12,343 nt of DNA from an uncultured Eubacteriales bacterium (GTDB lineage Bacteria; Bacillota; Clostridia; UMGS1840). A program made the position numbers and the translations under genes. Position 1 is the first letter of the stretch. Each line of letters starts with the position of its first letter. The notes below the pieces were generated by a model. It was given only the letters and a program-made list of their open reading frames with translations. It was not told the origin of the DNA and searched no databases. Below, one piece after another: positions 2,674 to 10,431 of this stretch. The stretch lies in NCBI GenBank assembly GCA_900555525.1, contig USLP01000017.1, positions 1 to 12,343 on the forward strand, given 5' to 3'.

Positions 2674-3735
2674 ATGACTAAAGTAGATATTTTTTCAGGA
2701 TTTTTGGGAGCAGGCAAAACCACTCTTATAAAAAAACTTATCAATGAGGTTTATAAAGGCGAAAAACTCGTCCTTATAGAAAATGAATTTGGTGAAATAG
2801 GTATTGACGGCGGATTTTTGAAAGACGCGGGAATAGAAATAACGGAAATGAATTCGGGCTGTATTTGCTGCAGTTTGGTAGGCGACTTCGGAAAGGCGCT
2901 CAATAAGGTTGTGGAGGAATACGCTCCCGAAAGAATTTTGATAGAGCCGTCGGGCGTAGGAAAATTGAGCGATGTTGCAAAGGCTGTTGAAAACGCTCAC
3001 TGCGACGGCTTGGTTATAACCGGCAAAACAACGGTATGCGACGCGAAAAAATGCAAAATGTATGCGTCAAATTTCGGAGAATTTTATAACGACCAGATAG
3101 AAAATGCAACAACAATCATTTTGAGCCATACGGACGGCATAAGCGAAGCAAAGCTTGAAACGGCTGTAAAAACCGTTAAGGGCATAAACCCTCATGCGGT
3201 TTTGGTAACAACTCCGCTTTCGCTTCTTACGGGCGAACAGCTCAAAAACGCAATCTCGGCTTCCGATACGCTTTCAAACAGCATGAAGGAACTTTCCGAA
3301 AAAGAAGAAATCTGCCCCGAATGCGGTCATCATCATGACCACGACCATGAACATGAACACGAACATCACCATGAACATGAGGAGCATGAACATCATCACG
3401 ACCATGACGGTCATTGTTGTTGCGGTCATGACCACGACCACGAGCATCATCACCACGCAGACGAAGTGTTCACAAGCTGGGGAACGGAAACGACAAGAAA
3501 ATTCACGGCTGATGAAATCGAAAATGCGCTTTCGGAGCTTATAAACGAAAAGAAATACGGCATAATTCTGCGTGCAAAGGGAATTGTCGAAGGTACGGAC
3601 GGCAAATGGATTCATTTTGACTATATCCCCGGAGAACCCGACATACGAAACGGCTCTGCGGGAATTATCGGCAGAATCTGCGTTATAGGCTCAAAAATAA
3701 ACGAAGAAGAAATCAAGAAGCTGTTTAACGTATAA
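2674..3735 (+). CDS. COG0523 (CobW/G3E) metal-chaperone GTPase with His/Cys-rich segment
   Basis: G3E P-loop GTPases of this class load or traffic metals such as zinc. Walker A is SGFLGAGKTT (8-17), the hallmark metal-binding CxCC is GCICC (C63, C65, C66), and EPSGVGK (91-97) occupies the Walker B region; the usual NKxD base-recognition motif is replaced by SHTDG (151-155). Residues 211-262 form a His-rich linker with 24 His plus CPEC (214-217) and CCC (248-250), a likely metal store or sensor. The C-terminal CobW domain spans about 270-353. Length (353 aa) is normal for the family. The next gene follows after 22 bases with its own GGAAAGG site, so the two are cotranscribed. Zinc is the best guess; cobalt, nickel or iron are possible. 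Confidence 0.93.
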   Translation: MTKVDIFSGFLGAGKTTLIKKLINEVYKGEKLVLIENEFGEIGIDGGFLKDAGIEITEMNSGCICCSLVGDFGKALNKVVEEYAPERILIEPSGVGKLSDVAKAVENAHCDGLVITGKTTVCDAKKCKMYASNFGEFYNDQIENATTIILSHTDGISEAKLETAVKTVKGINPHAVLVTTPLSLLTGEQLKNAISASDTLSNSMKELSEKEEICPECGHHHDHDHEHEHEHHHEHEEHEHHHDHDGHCCCGHDHDHEHHHHADEVFTSWGTETTRKFTADEIENALSELINEKKYGIILRAKGIVEGTDGKWIHFDYIPGEPDIRNGSAGIIGRICVIGSKINEEEIKKLFNV

Positions 3736-3757: not shown

Positions 3758-4705
3758 ATGGAAATACCCGTTTATCTTTTTACGGGATTTTTGGAAGCCG
3801 GAAAAACGAAATGTATACAGGAAACCATGGAAAGCTCCGAGTTTAACACGGGTGAAAAAACGCTTATAATACAATGCGAATCGGGCGAAGAGGAGCTTGA
3901 TTTTTCCAAATTCCCGATAAATGACCGCTCCGTTTTGGAGGTTTTGGAAAGCGAAGCGGAGCTTAACGCAAAAACGCTTAAAAAACTAAACGCAAAGCAC
4001 CACCCGAAAACGGTTTTGATTGAATATAACGGTATGTGGCAGCTGGACGAGCTTTATAATGCCCTCCCCGAAGAATGGTTTGTTTATCAAGAGATTTTCC
4101 TCGCCGACTGCACAACGTTTTTAATGTATAATAAAAATAACGGTATGAGAGGCCTTGTGGTGGACAAGCTGAAAAGCTGTGAGCTTGTTGTGTTTAACCG
4201 TGCGGACGGAACGGAAAAACGAGACGAATTTCATAAAATCGTGCGTGCCACAAGCCGAAAAACAAGTATTTTGTATGAAGACCTTGAGGGCAATACGGAA
4301 TATGACGAAACAAAAGACCCTCTGCCGTTTGATATAAATGCCGACGTTATAGAAATTTCGGACAGGGATTATGCGATATGGTACAGAGATTTTTCGGAGG
4401 ACGAAAGCAAATATTACGGCAAAAAGCTGAAAATAAAAGGCGTTGTCGGAATAAAAAATCTTCCGCCCGACGTGTGCGTTTTCGGACGCTATATAATGAC
4501 GTGCTGTATCGAAGATACGGAGTTTAAAGGCTTTGTCTGCAAATGCCCCAAAGGAACATTGCTCCGAAACAAAGAATGGGTTATAATTACCGCAACACTC
4601 AAAAACGAGTACAATGACCTTTACGAAGCCAAAGGTCCCGTCATGTATGCCGAAAAAATCGAGCATACCTCCGCCCCCGAAGAAGAGGTAGCAACATTCT
4701 TTTAA
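3758..4705 (+). CDS. Degenerate COG0523 GTPase fused to a DUF1980/TIGR03943-like domain
   Basis: The N-terminal half (about 1-190) resembles the preceding GTPase: Walker A TGFLEAGKT (9-17), IEYNG (88-92) where EPSG would be, and NRAD (147-150) as an NKxD variant. The CxCC metal motif is absent; QCESGEEE follows strand 2 instead. The C-terminal part (about 198-315) resembles the DUF1980 domain of B. subtilis YcgQ, including YYGKKLKIKGVV, GRYIMTCCI with paired C249-C250, and EWVIITATL. YcgQ-type proteins normally pair with a YcgR-type membrane permease, and none is seen here. I infer a soluble partner of the upstream GTPase, perhaps handing metal to or gating a transporter encoded elsewhere. 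There is no signal peptide. The gene ends directly before a strong terminator. Confidence 0.8.
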   Translation: MEIPVYLFTGFLEAGKTKCIQETMESSEFNTGEKTLIIQCESGEEELDFSKFPINDRSVLEVLESEAELNAKTLKKLNAKHHPKTVLIEYNGMWQLDELYNALPEEWFVYQEIFLADCTTFLMYNKNNGMRGLVVDKLKSCELVVFNRADGTEKRDEFHKIVRATSRKTSILYEDLEGNTEYDETKDPLPFDINADVIEISDRDYAIWYRDFSEDESKYYGKKLKIKGVVGIKNLPPDVCVFGRYIMTCCIEDTEFKGFVCKCPKGTLLRNKEWVIITATLKNEYNDLYEAKGPVMYAEKIEHTSAPEEEVATFF

Positions 4706-4796: not shown

Positions 4797-5483
4797 ATGA
4801 AAATAGCAATTTGCGACGACGAAGAAATATTTATTGACAGACTTAAAAATTTAATAACAGACAAAGAAGCGCAAATACACATTTTCCTTTCGGGAGAAGA
4901 GCTGATTAATTCCGACATTGATTTTGATATTGTCTTACTGGATATTGAAATGCCCGGGACAGACGGCTTGAGCGTAGCTTCGCAACTGTACCGGAAAAAC
5001 AGAAAGACATTGCTTTTATTTATTACTTCGCATAGAGAATATTCCACAAAAGGCTATGAGTTCAGAGCTTTTAGATATGTTTTGAAATCCGAACCCGACG
5101 ATTTTGTTAAGAGAAATATTCAAGATGCGATTAATGAATATAAAAATTATGATTTTTATATAACCGTAAGCTATAAAGGCGAATATGCTAAAATTTTATC
5201 CGCACAGATTATTTATATAGAAGCGTTCGGGCATACGATAACCATACATACTGCCGATAAGGCTTATATCGGAAAAAATAAATTCAAAGATATATGCAGG
5301 CTTCTTGAAGAACACGGATTTGTACAATGCCATAAAAGCTATATTGTTAATATGCGGTATATAAAAACCATTGAAAAAAACTCATGTGTAAATATGACAA
5401 ACGAAATAAAACTGCCAATCGGACGAAAATACAGTGCAAATACAACAGAAGCATATTTGAAGTTTATAGACAGGAGAATTTAA
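4797..5483 (+). CDS. agrA: AgrA-like LytTR response regulator
   Basis: The 228-aa protein has a CheY-like receiver (1-115) with acidic pocket D7-D8, phosphoacceptor D49 in LLDIEMPG, T77 and K97. A LytTR DNA-binding domain follows (about 120-228), with YIEAFGH, the conserved QCHKSYIVNMRYI and LPIGRKY. LytTR regulators of the AgrA/ComE type bind pairs of direct repeats near promoters. The start at 4797 is chosen for AGGAGGG at 4783-4789; an in-frame ATG at 4773 has no such site and would add eight residues before the normal MKIAICDD start. The sensor kinase gene begins two bases after the stop codon. The candidate target is the direct repeat at 6744-6779. No clear promoter is visible in the 60 bases after the upstream terminator. 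Confidence 0.93.
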   Translation: MKIAICDDEEIFIDRLKNLITDKEAQIHIFLSGEELINSDIDFDIVLLDIEMPGTDGLSVASQLYRKNRKTLLLFITSHREYSTKGYEFRAFRYVLKSEPDDFVKRNIQDAINEYKNYDFYITVSYKGEYAKILSAQIIYIEAFGHTITIHTADKAYIGKNKFKDICRLLEEHGFVQCHKSYIVNMRYIKTIEKNSCVNMTNEIKLPIGRKYSANTTEAYLKFIDRRI

Positions 5484-5484
5484 T

Positions 5485-6762
5485 ATGAAAGGTATAATAG
5501 AATTTGTTTCTTGTATTTTGGATATAGTTATAGTATTTATATATTTTGACGGTGTGCTTGAACGCAAGAAAAATATAGGCAATTTGTTTTTTGTATATTT
5601 TTGTGCCATGATAGCGGTAAATTTTGTAAGAACAAATTTGTTTTTATCTTTTCGGATAAATATACTTGTTTCCATTGTAATATTGTTATTAACGGCATTA
5701 CTGTGTTTTGACGGCTCGTTTGCGAGAAAATTGTTTTTTATAGCCGTGAATGCAATTTCGATTATGATTTCGGAAATACTGACTGCAATATTTCTTTCAA
5801 CATTCTTAAAGATTGAATATGATGACGGCTTTACAATGCGGTATTTGGGGATTGCATTTTCTACAACACTTTTGTTTGTGTTAAACCTGTTTACAATTTA
5901 CATTGCAAGAAAAAAATACAAGAGCCTGCCTGTAAAATATAATATACTTATGATATTATGCCCTGTATTCAGCTTATATATTTTGATACTTTTGGATTCA
6001 TATATTGCGCAAGCTTCAAACCATAACTATTTCATGTCATTTATTGCCGTATTGGGGTTAGGGTACATAAATATAATGGTATTCGACTTTTTTGATTATT
6101 ACGAAAAAGGCTTGAAAGCGCAAACTCTTGATATAATCTTGAAATCAAATGAAGAAAATTATAAGCTTTTGGAAGAAAACGAAAAGGAGCTTCATATATT
6201 AAGACATGATATTTTAAAATACATGGCAGAAATGAAAGAAATGCTGAAAGCGGGAAAATCCGAAGCCGCCGAACAATATGCCGAAGATATAAATAATATC
6301 GTTTTCAATCATACCTCGGTTTCGCGTACGGGTAATTTGGTTTTAGATACAATTTTAAATATTGAAAATAAAAAGGCTGTTGCTCTGGGAATAAAATATG
6401 ATGTTAAGCTGAATATTTCAGAGAATATAAATATATTGTCAATTGACTTAAGCAGGGTATTGTATAACGCAATAGACAACGCTATTGAAGCGTGCGAAAA
6501 AGTAAAGGATAAGTATATTTTAGTGTCAATAACCTCTGATGAGAAAATGCTGAAAATAATTATAGAAAACACATCGCCTTATGTGGAAATAAAGGATAAC
6601 AAAATAAAAACAACAAAATCGGATAACATAAGGCATGGATATGGTATCAAAAGCATAAAAAGCGCTTTGAAAAATAATGACGGCTTAATTTCGCTGGATT
6701 ATCAAAACGGAATATTTATATGCAGAATAATTATGAAAAATGATGTCGTTTGTGAAAAATAA
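5485..6762 (+). CDS. agrC: AgrC-like GHKL sensor histidine kinase
   Basis: The 425-aa product starts with about six hydrophobic segments (residues 3-205), as in AgrC sensors that bind a cyclic peptide outside the cell. A coiled linker follows (about 208-240). The phosphoacceptor is H241 in LRHDILKYM, typical of the family. The ATPase domain has an N box YNAIDNAIEA (327-336) and a GYGIKSI glycine box (385-391) of HATPase_c_5/GHKL type. It sits one base after agrA with AGGAG at 5472-5476, so translation is probably coupled. Its 3' end holds the first half of a direct repeat that is probably the operator for agrB, and no terminator separates it from agrB. The ligand is inferred to be the product of the agrD gene downstream. 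Confidence 0.92.
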   Translation: MKGIIEFVSCILDIVIVFIYFDGVLERKKNIGNLFFVYFCAMIAVNFVRTNLFLSFRINILVSIVILLLTALLCFDGSFARKLFFIAVNAISIMISEILTAIFLSTFLKIEYDDGFTMRYLGIAFSTTLLFVLNLFTIYIARKKYKSLPVKYNILMILCPVFSLYILILLDSYIAQASNHNYFMSFIAVLGLGYINIMVFDFFDYYEKGLKAQTLDIILKSNEENYKLLEENEKELHILRHDILKYMAEMKEMLKAGKSEAAEQYAEDINNIVFNHTSVSRTGNLVLDTILNIENKKAVALGIKYDVKLNISENINILSIDLSRVLYNAIDNAIEACEKVKDKYILVSITSDEKMLKIIIENTSPYVEIKDNKIKTTKSDNIRHGYGIKSIKSALKNNDGLISLDYQNGIFICRIIMKNDVVCEK

Positions 6763-6779
6763 TTGTCGTTCGTGCAAAA
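6744..6779 (+). promoter_or_regulatory. Candidate AgrA/LytTR operator: 16-bp direct repeat, 20-bp period
   Basis: TGTCGTTTGTGAAAAA (6744-6759) and TGTCGTTCGTGCAAAA (6764-6779) match at 14 of 16 positions and lie 20 bases apart, two helical turns. The second copy ends three bases before a -35 element. LytTR activators such as AgrA and ComE use two direct repeats with a similar two-turn spacing next to the -35. The first copy overlaps the end of agrC. The bases do not match the S. aureus AgrA site, so binding is inferred from geometry and context. Confidence 0.65.
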
Positions 6780-6782
6780 CAC

Positions 6783-6811
6783 TTGAATTTTAATGAAAAA
6801 TATGTTAGACT
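6783..6811 (+). promoter_or_regulatory. Internal promoter for agrB-agrD with extended -10
   Basis: TTGAAT (6783-6788) and TAGACT (6806-6811) are 17 bases apart, with TG at 6803-6804 giving an extended -10. Transcription should begin near 6818, about 16 bases before the agrB ATG, leaving the Shine-Dalgarno intact but omitting most of the left arm of the start-codon hairpin. Confidence 0.6.
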
Positions 6812-6840
6812 ATCATCAAGAGGAGGGGACTTGATGATAG
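6810..6840 (+). promoter_or_regulatory. Inverted repeat enclosing the agrB Shine-Dalgarno and start codon
   Basis: CTATCATCAAG (6810-6820) pairs perfectly over 11 bp with CTTGATGATAG (6830-6840). The 9-nt loop is AGGAGGGGA, the Shine-Dalgarno, and the right arm contains the ATG (6834-6836). In read-through mRNA from agrAC this hairpin should limit initiation. In mRNA from the internal promoter the left arm is almost entirely missing. Confidence 0.7.
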
Positions 6841-7433
6841 CGACAATTTCAAGAAAATTATCATTGACTTTATTGAAAAGTAATGCTATCAATCAAGAAG
6901 AATTAAATGTTTATGCATATGGCATACAGCTTTTAATTTTAAGTATTATTGATTGGAGCATTACTTTTTTATTGGTATTTTTGATAGGTGAGATTTATCT
7001 GTCCGCAACATACTTTTTTGTATTCTTTATATTGCGCAGACATTGCGGAGGTTATCATGCCGAAACGCATATACAATGTATAATAGTTTCAAATATTGTT
7101 TATGTTTTATCTGTGCTGATATCGGCAAATATACGTTATGAAAATTTTACAATACCGCTATTTCTCGGAGAGCTTATAAATTTAATTATATTACATAAGC
7201 TTTCTCCGATAGAACACCCCAATAAACCGATAACAAAATCGGAAATTATGAGGCATAAAAAGCTGGGACGAATTTTAAATATGCTTTTCAGCATAGCTGC
7301 GATTGGTATTAATTCAATAGGTATAAGCCGATTTGCTTGCATTATTCTTACGGCGCAATTAAGTGTAAGCATTGCGGTTGTTTTACAAAAAATAAAAAAT
7401 CAAAAAAGAAAGGAGGAAAAAACAGATGAGTAA
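6834..7433 (+). CDS. agrB: AgrB-like accessory gene regulator membrane protease
   Basis: AgrB is a membrane cysteine protease that cuts the C-terminal part of AgrD and forms its thiolactone. The 199-aa protein has several hydrophobic segments and the family signature RRHCGGYHAETHIQC, placing the catalytic pair at H75 and C82, the same spacing of seven as H77/C84 in S. aureus AgrB. The start at 6834 follows AGGAGGGG (6821-6828) with five bases between. An upstream in-frame TTG at 6783 is rejected because it lies on the -35 element. The C-terminus is basic (KNQKRKEEK), and the gene overlaps agrD by eight bases. Expression probably depends on both the internal promoter and the start-codon hairpin. 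Confidence 0.93.
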   Translation: MIATISRKLSLTLLKSNAINQEELNVYAYGIQLLILSIIDWSITFLLVFLIGEIYLSATYFFVFFILRRHCGGYHAETHIQCIIVSNIVYVLSVLISANIRYENFTIPLFLGELINLIILHKLSPIEHPNKPITKSEIMRHKKLGRILNMLFSIAAIGINSIGISRFACIILTAQLSVSIAVVLQKIKNQKRKEEKTDE

Positions 7434-7566
7434 ATGGAAGTTTACCGCACAATCCCTTTTATGTGCAATTGCCTTTTTTATGGCGGCAAATTCAGTAGGT
7501 ACAATGTGCATGGGAAGATACTATCAGCCCGAAGAACCCAAAGAAATGCTGAAATTTAAAAAATAG
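7426..7566 (+). CDS. agrD: AgrD-like autoinducing peptide precursor (46 aa)
   Basis: This small ORF has AGGAGG (7411-7416) nine bases before ATG and overlaps the agrB stop. It has the three-part AgrD plan: a basic, amphipathic N-terminus (SKWKFTAQSLLCAIAFFMA), a core with a central Cys (C28), and a charged tail containing PEEPKEM that resembles the S. aureus tail PEVPKEL. Aligning PKE to S. aureus AgrD puts the AgrB cut after Y32. This gives a five-residue ring C28-M29-G30-R31-Y32, the ring size of staphylococcal autoinducing peptides. A cut after Y33 (six-residue ring) is also possible. The N-terminal cut, within about residues 22-27, cannot be fixed. Identification rests on position after agrB and on layout, not on close sequence identity. 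Confidence 0.85.
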   Translation: MSKWKFTAQSLLCAIAFFMAANSVGTMCMGRYYQPEEPKEMLKFKK

Positions 7567-7604: not shown

Positions 7605-7676
7605 ATGTTCATTTATAAGCAGTCGGCAGAGTATTTGTCGGTACTGCTGAAAAACAATAATTGCTGTGCAACATAA
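7605..7676 (+). CDS. Possible 23-aa peptide with a CysCys C-terminus
   Basis: An ORF of 23 codons starts at ATG 7605 with a perfect AGGAGG (7591-7596) eight bases upstream. The product begins MFIYKQSAEYLSVLL and ends KNNNCCAT. It follows agrD by 38 bases with no terminator, so it should be on the same transcript. It has no signal peptide and matches no family I know. It might be a second signalling or regulatory peptide of the agr locus or a leader peptide; it might also be chance. The strong ribosome binding site is the main argument for translation. Confidence 0.4.
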   Translation: MFIYKQSAEYLSVLLKNNNCCAT

Positions 7677-7856: not shown

Positions 7857-8306
7857 ATGAAAAAATTCAGTAAAATTATAGCAACATGTTTAATGGCAGT
7901 TATGTTATTTTCAGTTATGAGTATCAATGCTTTTGCAACAACAAATGAAATCTACACATCAACTAATGTAAAAAGAAGAACGGTTACACCGTCCACTACA
8001 GTTGTGTTAAACCCAAATGCTTCATCACAAATTATACCTTGGTCTATATACAGCGGAATGGGATACTGGAAAATTCATTTAATGAATGACACAAGCAGTG
8101 TAATGACAGTACGTATTTTTAAAAATTCTCCGCAAGGAACGCCTATTTATACAGGATACGTTATGCCAAATTCTTCATTGCCTATGTACGGCGAATCGGC
8201 ATTATCAAGCGGAGCATATTATGTTACTGTTTCAACAAACGGCAGCGTTAATTTAAACGGTACTCTTTATTATAAATTTGCCACTGCTTACGATGAACTG
8301 TTTTAA
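7857..8306 (+). CDS. Secreted protein of unknown function (149 aa)
   Basis: I do not recognise the family. Residues 1-27 form a clear Sec signal peptide with a basic start (MKKFSKI), hydrophobic core and NAFA cleavage site, leaving a mature protein of about 122 residues without Cys. The mature part is rich in Ser, Thr, Asn, Tyr and Gly with alternating hydrophobic residues (GYWKIHLMNDTSSVMTVRIF, GAYYVTVSTNGSVNL), suggesting a small all-beta sandwich like many extracellular binding domains. AAAGGA (7843-7848) supports the start. It lies 180 bases after the 23-aa ORF in an AT-rich gap with no convincing promoter or AgrA-like repeat. Its position behind agrBD makes it a candidate output of the quorum system, by inference only. 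Confidence 0.75.
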   Translation: MKKFSKIIATCLMAVMLFSVMSINAFATTNEIYTSTNVKRRTVTPSTTVVLNPNASSQIIPWSIYSGMGYWKIHLMNDTSSVMTVRIFKNSPQGTPIYTGYVMPNSSLPMYGESALSSGAYYVTVSTNGSVNLNGTLYYKFATAYDELF

Positions 8307-8366: not shown

Positions 8367-9017
8367 ATGAAAAAATTTTTTATAAGCTGTGCTTTGGCGG
8401 TTTGCGTTTTTGCTTCAAATGTGAGCGCATTTGCGGCGGAGGACGATTTTTCATCAAAAATAAATGAACTTAAGGGATATAACATAATTAAGGGTGATGA
8501 AAACGGCGATTTGCACTTGGAGGATAATTTAACAAGAGCAGAAACGGTTACGATTATATGCAGACTTTTGAATCTCAAAACCGATAATGTCGTGTCGGGA
8601 TTTACTGATGTTCCGAGCGATTTTTGGGCGGCAGGATATATAACGGCGGCATATGATAACGGACTTGTTGAAGGATGCGGAAACGGAATTTTCAATCCGA
8701 ACGGCAAGGTAACATATTCCGAAGCGGTGAAAATGATTTTATCTGCAATGGGCTATATGCCGAAAGCCAAAGAGCTCGGCGGCTATCCTGATGGATATAT
8801 CGATACCGCAAAGGAAATCGGATTGACTGACGGCAATATTGAAAATCCTGCGGAAATAATAAAAAGAAAAGACGTAATGGAGCTGGTTTATAAGTCATTG
8901 GATATTCCGATTATGCAGGTTACATCGTTCGGAATCGGTACGGAATATAAAATCATGGACGGTAACAACGGAAATCCGCTTATAACGCTTCGTAAAGTAA
9001 TAGAAGAGGCAAAATAA
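8367..9017 (+). CDS. Secreted S-layer homology (SLH) domain protein
   Basis: A Sec signal peptide (1-23, cleavage near AFA-AEDD) is followed by three SLH-type repeats, at about 28-70 (LTRAETVTIICRLL), 79-130 (FTDVPSDFWAAGYITAAYDNGLVEG, then VTYSEAVKMILSAMGY) and 140-180 (GYIDTAKEIGLTDG...RKDVMELVYKSL). Three SLH repeats normally bind pyruvylated secondary wall polymer and hold a protein on the cell surface. Here almost nothing else is attached; the last 35 residues are not a known domain, so it may be a minimal wall-bound protein. The start is supported by AGAGGA at 8351-8356. It is 60 bases after the previous secreted protein with no terminator between, so the two are probably cotranscribed. 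Confidence 0.88.
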   Translation: MKKFFISCALAVCVFASNVSAFAAEDDFSSKINELKGYNIIKGDENGDLHLEDNLTRAETVTIICRLLNLKTDNVVSGFTDVPSDFWAAGYITAAYDNGLVEGCGNGIFNPNGKVTYSEAVKMILSAMGYMPKAKELGGYPDGYIDTAKEIGLTDGNIENPAEIIKRKDVMELVYKSLDIPIMQVTSFGIGTEYKIMDGNNGNPLITLRKVIEEAK

Positions 9018-9024
9018 AAGTTTA

Positions 9025-9066
9025 TAATTTAAATGCGTCCTTGTACTGTAGGACGCATTTAAAATT
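9025..9066 (+). terminator. Terminator hairpin after the SLH gene
   Basis: AAATGCGTCC (9031-9040) pairs perfectly with GGACGCATTT (9051-9060), and the stem extends into flanking AATT/AATT bases, with a 10-nt loop. It starts a few bases after the stop. The downstream tract is AT-rich rather than a pure T run. It closes the agr-surface protein region. Confidence 0.7.
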
Positions 9067-9516: not shown

Positions 9517-9771
9517 ATGGAAAATATTAACAAAGAAGCTTTAAGCAAGCTTTTTTCGGGAGTGCCTAAGGATAAACTCGAAAAAGCGATGAAAACCGCC
9601 GAGACTTTGGCAAAAGACCCAAACGTAAAAAATTCGTTTTCAAAAATATCCGATGCAAAAATCCGTTCTATGCTGTCAGCTATGAACGACGGAGACAAAC
9701 GCCGTTTGGCGTCGCTTATTGCAAATTCCGACAACGGAAACGTTATAGATTTGATAAAAAACTTAAAATAA
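9517..9771 (+). CDS. Uncharacterised small helical protein (84 aa)
   Basis: The product is soluble, charged and almost certainly all-helical (MENINKEALSKLF, then KDKLEKAMKTAETLAKDP), with no signal peptide, membrane segment or Cys. AAAGGAGA (9502-9509) gives a well-spaced start. No known motif is recognised. It heads a tight three-gene run, 25 bases before the next gene, whose product has a similar opening (EIDKESIANMLG against ENINKEALSKLF), hinting at a distant relationship. Codon use looks like that of the neighbours. Function is unknown; association with membrane or spore structures is only suggested by the third gene of the set. Confidence 0.7.
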   Translation: MENINKEALSKLFSGVPKDKLEKAMKTAETLAKDPNVKNSFSKISDAKIRSMLSAMNDGDKRRLASLIANSDNGNVIDLIKNLK

Positions 9772-9796
9772 CAGCGATGTACGGGAGGTAAGAAAA

Positions 9797-10132
9797 GTGG
9801 CTGAAATCGATAAAGAGAGCATTGCGAATATGCTTGGCAGTATACTGGGCGAAGACAAAAAGGACACGGTTAATTCGCTTTTGGATTCGCTCGGAGGTTC
9901 AGAAACGCAAAATTCACCTCAAAATAATTCGGAACTTTTGGATTCTGCCGAAATAATGGCAAAAATGACAAAGGTTTTGGGAAAGCTCAACAATACGAAA
10001 AACAACAGGGATTTTGCGCTTCTTTACGCAATACGTCCGTTTATGAGAGCGGGCAGGCAGGGTAAAATCGACACCTGCTTAAAAATGTTACAGGCAGTAA
10101 CCGTCATAAACGAAATAAAAAAAGAAGGATAG
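9797..10132 (+). CDS. Uncharacterised small helical protein (111 aa), GTG start
   Basis: Translation is assigned to GTG 9797 after GGGAGGT (9783-9789). The N-terminal 35 residues look helical (EIDKESIANMLGSILG...VNSLLDSLGG), residues 36-47 are a Ser/Asn/Gln-rich linker, and the C-terminal half is helical and basic (RDFALLYAIRPFMRAGRQGK, then IDTCLKMLQAVTVINEIKK). It has one Cys and no membrane segment. I do not recognise the family. It lies between the 84-aa gene and the hydrophobic-tailed 95-aa gene with gaps of 25 and 11 bases, so the three are probably made together. Confidence 0.7.
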   Translation: MAEIDKESIANMLGSILGEDKKDTVNSLLDSLGGSETQNSPQNNSELLDSAEIMAKMTKVLGKLNNTKNNRDFALLYAIRPFMRAGRQGKIDTCLKMLQAVTVINEIKKEG

Positions 10133-10143
10133 GGTGAAGTTTT

Positions 10144-10431
10144 GTGTATCAGTCTTTTCCGCAAAAAAACATAAACAGGAGCAACAGCGCCATGCCGATT
10201 ATAAAGGAGCCGCCGCATGAAAAATGCGCCCCTAAAAAGCCGCCCGGCGAACAGCCGTGCGCTTGCCCACCAAAACCGCAGCAGGAGAGCTGTGCGGCGA
10301 TTCCGCAGAACATTTTCGGCTCTTTAAAGGCAGATGACCTTGTTATTATAGGCATACTTTTGATTCTCCTTTATGAGGGAACGAACGATATGCTGATAAT
10401 CGCTATTTTGGGAATAATTTTGTTTTTTTAA
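10144..10431 (+). CDS. Uncharacterised Pro/Cys-rich protein with hydrophobic C-terminal tail (95 aa)
   Basis: Start GTG 10144 follows a purine-rich GGATAGGGTGAAG (10126-10138) that overlaps the previous stop. The N-terminal 55 residues are polar, Pro-rich and contain four Cys (PPHEKCAPKKPPGEQPCACPPKPQQ is the core region). The C-terminal part, after KADDLVII, forms two short hydrophobic segments (about 66-77 and 83-95) split by EGTND, ending in ILFF at the stop. The DDLxxIxxLLLLYEG pattern is one I recall from small uncharacterised proteins of spore-forming Clostridia, but no function is established. A tail-anchored or hairpin membrane association is likely. No strong terminator follows; a 9-bp inverted repeat lies at 10486-10518. 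Confidence 0.7.
   Translation: MYQSFPQKNINRSNSAMPIIKEPPHEKCAPKKPPGEQPCACPPKPQQESCAAIPQNIFGSLKADDLVIIGILLILLYEGTNDMLIIAILGIILFF

What the first reader, a model, noticed from the sequence alone, without database searches (positions are those of the whole stretch)
7426..7566. Overlooked AgrD pre-peptide with a predicted new autoinducing peptide
A 46-codon ORF overlapping agrB has the AgrD plan: amphipathic N-terminus, core Cys28 and acidic PEEPKEM tail. Aligning the tail to S. aureus PEVPKEL predicts a five-residue thiolactone ring Cys-Met-Gly-Arg-Tyr with a short N-terminal extension. I know of no described signal with this ring. Seen: ORF, Shine-Dalgarno, Cys, tail. Known: AgrB cyclises AgrD on a conserved Cys. 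Inferred: exact cut sites.
Basis: partly seen in the sequence, partly recalled or inferred. Interest (0 to 1): 0.72.

Follow-up and report, generated by a model that had tools for sequence, protein, structure and literature searches.

The report
Quorum-signal precursor (AgrD) with basic ring
The small gene is a genuine precursor of a cyclic bacterial signalling peptide inside a complete, ordinary agr quorum-sensing operon; only the predicted ring (Cys-Met-Gly-Arg-Tyr, with an unusual positive charge) looks new.

Summary
The ORF at 7426-7566 is real and is an AgrD precursor. It matches the NCBIfam AgrD model TIGR04223 at 35.3 bits (cut-off 19), overlaps an AgrB gene by 8 nt, and is last in an operon agrA-agrC-agrB-agrD. 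Eleven database relatives and an ortholog in genome G200 keep Cys28, Tyr32-Tyr33-Gln34 and Pro38. The ring Cys28-Tyr32 is well supported: 30 of 30 AgrDs read from a class sample carry [YH][QE]PxxP, and 28 of 30 have Cys or Ser exactly five residues before it, the register of a clostridial pentapeptide confirmed by LC-MS/MS (PMC5322536). The string CMGRY is in no paper of the library searched. None of those 30 AgrDs and none of 20 tabulated AIPs has Lys/Arg in the ring, though a few other AgrDs fetched here do. 'Overlooked' is unsupported: a 98% identical predicted protein is in the database. Amphipathicity of the leader was not confirmed. AgrDs over cut-off occur in 76 of 291 sampled genomes. 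Verdict: new member of a known kind. Leads: tandem LytTR-like sites before agrB, and an acidic AgrC loop that might read the ring charge (post hoc).

The parts
7426..7566 (+). agrD: 46-aa AIP precursor; leader about 1-27, predicted ring Cys28-Tyr32 (CMGRY), tail Tyr33-Lys46
   Evidence: TIGR04223 E 8.7e-9, over cut-off; homologues; ring register
7507..7521 (+). codons 28-32, predicted thiolactone macrocycle Cys-Met-Gly-Arg-Tyr
   Evidence: C28 and Y32 invariant in 12 rows, R31 in 11 of 12; position -5 from [YH][QE]PxxP is C/S in 28 of 30 class AgrDs; coordinates checked
6834..7433 (+). agrB: membrane protease that cuts and cyclises AgrD; His75 and Cys82 in GGYHAETHIQC
   Evidence: PF04647 E 1.9e-33; His and Cys seven residues apart, kept in 6 of 6 AgrBs aligned
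5485..6762 (+). agrC-like sensor kinase, GHKL ATPase domain; about seven membrane segments by hydropathy
   Evidence: PF14501 E 8.6e-22; weak AgrC hit NF046015 E 1.8e-4, below cut-off; hydropathy and alignment
4797..5483 (+). agrA-like response regulator with LytTR DNA-binding domain
   Evidence: PF00072 E 1.2e-14 and PF04397 E 1.1e-18; NF046049 AgrA E 5.2e-7, below cut-off
6745..6774 (+). tandem half-sites GTCGTTTGTG / GTCGTTCGTG, period 20, candidate AgrA (LytTR) operator 89 bp before agrB
   Evidence: direct repeat; only pair scoring 17 or more of 20 in the window; similar pairs 90-106 bp upstream of agrB in some related loci
6783..6811 (+). candidate agrBD promoter TTGAAT-17-TAGACT (8 of 12 consensus matches)
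   Evidence: read from sequence; below the 9-of-12 threshold of the scan, which did not list it
7410..7416 (+). Shine-Dalgarno AAGGAGG of agrD
   Evidence: sequence
7857..8306 (+). 149-aa predicted secreted protein, possible agr output (not shown)
   Evidence: no Pfam match; small secreted genes follow agr in other loci, but mature parts not shown homologous to this one
8367..9017 (+). 216-aa S-layer-homology (SLH) protein, possible agr output (not shown)
   Evidence: PF00395 E 3.4e-13; SLH genes also follow agr in L036 and L091, but SLH relatives occur in 70 of 70 genomes searched
9028..9063 (+). terminator-like hairpin after the SLH gene
   Evidence: 14-pair stem with 5 G-C pairs; its 10-base tail ATTATTAATT is only partly T

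Best explanation
The ORF is agrD of a complete agr operon (agrA-agrC-agrB-agrD, one strand) in an unnamed bacterium whose agr relatives lie in the class Clostridia. AgrB cuts AgrD after Tyr32, and the Cys28 thiol takes over the carbonyl to close a 16-membered thiolactone ring Cys-Met-Gly-Arg-Tyr. A second protease removes the leader (cut site unknown; N-terminal tail 0 to about 6 residues) and the signal is exported. It binds the AgrC membrane sensor, AgrC phosphorylates the LytTR regulator AgrA, and AgrA activates the agrBD promoter through the tandem sites at 6745-6774, closing an autoinduction loop. Shown here: gene identity, operon, conserved residues, ring register by comparison. Inferred: all chemistry, cut sites and regulation. 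Targets may include the secreted and SLH genes downstream (weak).
For: TIGR04223 over cut-off. AgrB PF04647 E 1.9e-33, GHKL kinase and LytTR regulator on the same strand. 11 homologues keep C28, Y32, Y33, Q34, P38, K39. Orthologous agrACBD in G200 with AgrD CLGRY|YQP: AgrB 50%, AgrC 51%, AgrA 45%, AgrD 59% identity. More distant agr loci share gene order and the C-x4-YQP register. Register in 28 of 30 class AgrDs. LC-MS/MS-confirmed pentapeptide with the same spacing in C. thermocellum (passages); five-residue rings are the commonest form (passages of PMC4916163). AgrB His75-Cys82 kept in 6 of 6 AgrBs. Tandem LytTR-like sites.
Against: No product, transcript or genetic data. Six-residue rings are documented in some Clostridium, so CMGRYY is not excluded. 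PMC12312760 Table 1 gives C. botulinum AIP-1 as ACYW[CVYQP], a ring that contains YQP and breaks the register used here. One of 30 class AgrDs has Cys at -6 and one has Thr at -5; the 30 are the best-scoring genomes and several are near-identical, so they are not independent. AgrC and AgrA fall far short of the cut-offs of the AgrC and AgrA equivalog models. The operator motif was defined from the window and G200, and most of the other 41 agrB places scored do not show it.
Confidence: 0.9

Rival explanations
1. Same AgrD and same system, but another ring: for example six residues, Cys28-Tyr33 (CMGRYY), with cleavage before Gln34.
For: Six-residue rings exist in C. acetobutylicum and are predicted in its relatives (passages). 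A published table puts YQP inside the C. botulinum AIP-1 ring. Tyr33 is as conserved as Tyr32.
Against: The conserved Tyr before the tail is the first residue after the ring in the LC-MS/MS-confirmed C. thermocellum AgrD. In 28 of 30 class AgrDs a five-residue ring would end just before it.
Confidence: 0.06
2. AgrBD makes a cyclic peptide that is not a quorum signal but, for example, acts on growth or on competitors.
For: The C. thermocellum cyclic pentapeptide limits growth when added, and its agrD is not in an apparent agr operon (passages).
Against: Here a receptor-type kinase and a LytTR regulator are in the same operon.
Confidence: 0.04
3. A chance or non-functional ORF next to agrB.
For: Short ORFs are common: 115 ORFs of 30 aa or more in the window.
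Against: Profile match 16 bits over cut-off, conserved homologues, coding-type substitution pattern 16/9/29, strong Shine-Dalgarno and overlap with agrB.
Confidence: 0.005

Closest known systems
AgrD of Clostridium thermocellum, Clo1313_2818 (passages of PMC5322536)
   Same: Five-residue ring, Tyr right after the ring, conserved Pro five residues after that Tyr
   Different: Ser lactone instead of Cys thiolactone; its agrD is not in an apparent agr operon; ring sequence differs
AgrD of Clostridium perfringens (ring CLWFT)
   Same: Clostridial AgrD with a five-residue ring starting at Cys
   Different: No basic residue in the ring; listed as agrBD without adjoining agrC-agrA
Staphylococcus aureus agrBDCA
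   Same: Same four functions and presumably the same chemistry
   Different: Gene order here A-C-B-D; ring CMGRY instead of CDFIM, CSSLF, CDFLL or CYFIM; no RNA family but one tRNA reached Rfam's gathering score in the window
   Same: Orthologous operon, AgrD ring CLGRY, same order
   Different: Followed directly by a second agrACBD with a Cys-less AgrD (SAGGA|YQPEEPK); no SLH hit in the 15 kb fetched

Membership tests
AgrD (TIGR04223) | profile score over curated cut-off (19 bits) | tested here: met
   35.3 bits, E 8.7e-9
AgrD (TIGR04223) | encoded next to agrB | tested here: met
   8-nt overlap with an AgrB gene, PF04647 E 1.9e-33
AgrD (TIGR04223) | conserved Cys or Ser nucleophile in register with the PxxP tail | tested here: met
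   C28 invariant in 12 rows; register as in 28 of 30 class AgrDs
AgrD (TIGR04223) | amphipathic N-terminal helix | tested here: inconclusive
   hydrophobic moment not above shuffles; hydrophobic segment 10-29; a moment is a crude test and no known AgrD was run as a control
AgrD (TIGR04223) | charged C-terminal tail | tested here: met
   3 acidic and 4 basic of 14 residues
AgrD (TIGR04223) | processed to a secreted cyclic peptide | not testable with these tools
   needs mass spectrometry
AgrB (PF04647) | family match and His/Cys catalytic pair | tested here: met
   H75 and C82 seven apart, kept in 6 of 6 AgrBs; equivalence to S. aureus His77/Cys84 is recalled
AgrC/AgrA-like two-component pair | GHKL kinase with multi-pass sensor plus LytTR regulator | tested here: met
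   hydropathy
NCBIfam equivalogs AgrC (NF046015) and AgrA (NF046049) | score over the equivalog cut-off | tested here: not met
   20.8 of 500 bits and 29.5 of 400 bits; so they are agr-like, not members of these two models

The most novel reading that the evidence does not exclude
The window belongs to a lineage of agr systems whose thiolactone ring carries a positive charge (C-[MLV]-[GR]-[RK]-[YF]). A matching acidic second extracellular loop of AgrC (IEYDDGF in the window and G200, GGDD with CLGKF) reads it, so that specificity is set by charge rather than by the usual hydrophobic patch; the natural CMGRY/CMRRY pair would be two pherotypes.
Probability: 0.15. Interest if true: 0.5.

Novelty: new member of a known kind. 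Interest (0 to 1): 0.28.

Why it matters
It adds one concrete, synthesisable candidate signal (CMGRY thiolactone, calculated [M+H]+ 611.24 without tail) with its presumed receptor in the same operon. If the Arg-containing ring is made and sensed, it tests whether the hydrophobic-ring rule drawn from staphylococcal AIPs (recalled) holds in Clostridia.

Tried and rejected
Secreted-plus-SLH output module. Small secreted genes follow agr on the same strand in L036, L091, L098 and L118, with SLH genes next to them in L036 and L091. I gave this up as evidence. The mature part of the window's 149-aa protein has no convincing match to the others (best E 0.034 in a six-sequence database). No match at E 0.01 in 5 of 5 related genomes; in a class sample 9 of 196 genomes matched at E 0.01, the best G174 (2.3e-9, residues 45-143, not followed up), G200 not among them. 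SLH hits lie in 9 of 43 agr loci, only 3 of them (window included) in this arrangement, and SLH relatives occur in 70 of 70 genomes. It stays a lead.

Charge matching of ring and AgrC loop. The loop was chosen after seeing six AgrCs. Of 43 agrB places, 24 were dropped (8 with no AgrC within 3.5 kb on the same strand, 15 more with no AgrD by my pattern, and L109, whose pattern hit was not an AgrD), leaving 19. Of these, 5 of 5 with a basic ring have a net-negative loop against 6 of 14 without. The most acidic loop (net -6, L110) goes with an uncharged ring. The systems are related, the loop alignment is rough, and basic rings are not confined to one lineage (CAWKA, CIWKA; SRGYS, SRSGS).

Operator motif GTCGTTYRYG. 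Defined from the window and the two G200 loci, so these are no tests. Of 41 other agrB places scored, four score 15-16 of 20: L088, L036, L092, L101 (shuffle fractions 0, 0.005, 0.04, 0.07), the pair lying 104, 90, 90 and 106 bp before agrB. Six score 14: L038 (0.02; 101 bp), L089 (0.05; 105 bp; its printed coordinate was wrong because the contig ends there), and L096, L098, L110, L117 (0.075-0.21; 120-186 bp). The other 31 score 13 or less, including G020 and G047 (L034, L035).

Phage link: no relative in viral contigs with AgrB or with the AgrD alignment, although AgrB matches a phage protein family, phrog_10353, at 8.9e-13. The 23-codon ORF after agrD has no family match. The host could not be named: no genome is held for the window, and the closest genome, G200, is unnamed. 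Paper searches gave no paper on this lineage that I recognised in their listings; they cover openly licensed papers only, without supplements.

Full report
OBSERVATION. The ORF at 7426-7566 (+) exists as described: 46 codons from ATG, AAGGAGG nine bases upstream, and an 8-nt overlap with the 3' end of agrB. It passes the NCBI AgrD model TIGR04223 at 35.3 bits against a cut-off of 19. Pfam has no match for it. By hydrophobic moment the N-terminus is not more amphipathic than its own shuffles. The segment PEEPKEM is acidic, but the whole tail has 3 acidic and 4 basic residues.

SURROUNDINGS. The genes run agrA (LytTR regulator, 4797-5483), agrC (GHKL kinase with about seven membrane segments, 5485-6762), agrB (6834-7433) and agrD, all on the + strand. 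AgrC and AgrA are far below the cut-offs of the AgrC and AgrA equivalog models, so they are agr-like by domain and context. AgrB has His75 and Cys82 in GGYHAETHIQC, kept in 6 of 6 AgrBs aligned; that this is the S. aureus His77/Cys84 pair is recalled. Only a tRNA reached Rfam's gathering score in the window.

HOMOLOGUES. A search of about 5.8 billion proteins gave 4 relatives, and a second with their alignment gave 11 in all. In the 12-row alignment C28, Y32, Y33, Q34, P38 and K39 are invariant; R31 is kept in 11 of 12 (Ile in P0006) and G30 in 11 of 12 (Arg in P0001, otherwise identical to the window over 46 residues). Among 391 genomes drawn from the class of G004, 15 matched the AgrD alignment at E 1e-5, one strongly: G200, E 8.5e-25, the next 1.2e-11. 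Its AgrD has CLGRY|YQPEVP with His in place of Lys39; AgrB is 50%, AgrC 51% and AgrA 45% identical. More distant agr loci have CGGTY|YQP, CMFSV|YQP, CLGKF|YQP, CAWKA|YQP and CVYCY|HQP.

RING REGISTER. TIGR04223 matches over cut-off occur in 76 of 291 genomes of a class sample. For the 30 genomes whose best match came back as a locus, I read the AgrD frame: 30 of 30 have [YH][QE]PxxP, and five residues before it stands Cys in 20, Ser in 8, Thr in 1 and Trp in 1 (that one has Cys at -6). These 30 are the best-scoring of the 76, and several are near-identical, so they lean to the family consensus. In passages of PMC5322536, the C. thermocellum AgrD has the ring S25-F29, Y30 next and a conserved P35, confirmed by LC-MS/MS with a synthetic standard. 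The window has C28-Y32, Y33 and P38: the same spacing. Passages of PMC4916163 say that most known AIPs have five-residue rings, with six in C. acetobutylicum and nine in E. faecalis; the Listeria AIP was identified there as tailless CFMFV. Against this, Table 1 of PMC12312760 (section 3 read) gives C. botulinum AIP-1 as ACYW[CVYQP], with YQP inside the ring. The five-residue ring CMGRY is still the best call; the N-terminal cut is open.

NOVELTY. No paper in the library searched holds CMGRY or CVGRY as a string, and the one with CLGRY is about plant peptides (listing only; a hyphenated or drawn sequence would be missed, and so would supplements). Table 1 of PMC12312760 lists 20 AIPs, none with Lys or Arg in the ring; nor has any of the 30 class AgrDs. 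Basic rings are not unique to the window's lineage, however: CAWKA and CIWKA and the Ser rings SRGYS and SRSGS turned up in fetched loci. So the ring sequence is new within these searches and its charge uncommon, but the system is of a known and common kind. The word 'overlooked' is unsupported: P0001 is in the database already.

REGULATION. A direct repeat GTCGTTTGTG/GTCGTTCGTG with period 20 lies at 6745-6774, starting 89 bp before agrB, followed by TTGAAT-17-TAGACT. G200 has comparable pairs 91 and 98 bp before its two agrB genes. Among 41 other agrB places, four score 15-16 of 20 with the pair 90-106 bp before agrB, two of the six scoring 14 lie at 101 and 105 bp, and the rest are at chance or elsewhere. 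It is a candidate AgrA operator, not a proven one.

OUTPUT. A 149-aa secreted protein and a 216-aa SLH protein follow, before a hairpin at 9028-9063. Two other agr loci (L036, L091) have small secreted genes followed by SLH genes, but homology of the secreted protein is not shown and SLH genes are everywhere. There is precedent for an agr-controlled effector immediately downstream of agr (CA_C0082 in C. acetobutylicum, passages of PMC10301443).

NOVEL READING. The predicted second extracellular loop of AgrC is IEYDDGF in both window and G200. Over 19 AgrC/AgrD pairs, 5 of 5 with a basic ring have a net-negative loop against 6 of 14 others. This is post hoc, from related sequences, and the most acidic loop belongs to an uncharged ring: a lead only.

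Noticed in passing
window 7605-7676 (+): 23-codon ORF MFIYKQSAEYLSVLLKNNNCCAT with a strong Shine-Dalgarno (AAGGAGG) just after agrD; no family match.
   Followed up: partly
L056 5029-5187 (-): Second agrACBD in tandem, with a Cys-less AgrD, LASAGGA|YQPEEPK; Ser at the nucleophile position suggests a lactone ring SAGGA.
   Followed up: partly
L091, L092, L089, L107: AgrDs with small polar Ser rings (SHAGT, STGGA, SRGYS, SRSGS) before YQP/HQP/YEP, a possible group of lactone signals.
   Followed up: no
L098, L108, L110, L111, L112, L113, L118: AgrD-like ORFs with [TA]NS..N|GQPxxP, Asn before GQP and the nucleophile position often unclear.
   Followed up: no
P0001: Near-identical AgrD (98%) differing only by Gly30 to Arg inside the ring (CMRRY), a natural ring variant.
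   Followed up: no
window 2674-3735 and 3758-4705 (+): Two CobW-type GTPases in tandem, the first with a long His-rich stretch, the second fused to DUF1980_C.
   Followed up: no
window 9517-10431 (+): Three small ORFs in a row (84, 111, 95 aa); no Pfam family reached its curated cut-off.
   Followed up: no
L036, L091, L098, L118 downstream of agr: Secreted proteins of 158-209 aa placed right after agr genes, some with SLH genes; similar signal peptides, divergent mature parts.
   Followed up: partly
G174:C32 3020-5994 (L123, L132, L133): Three adjacent matches to the window's 149-aa secreted protein, best E 2.3e-9; context not examined.
   Followed up: no
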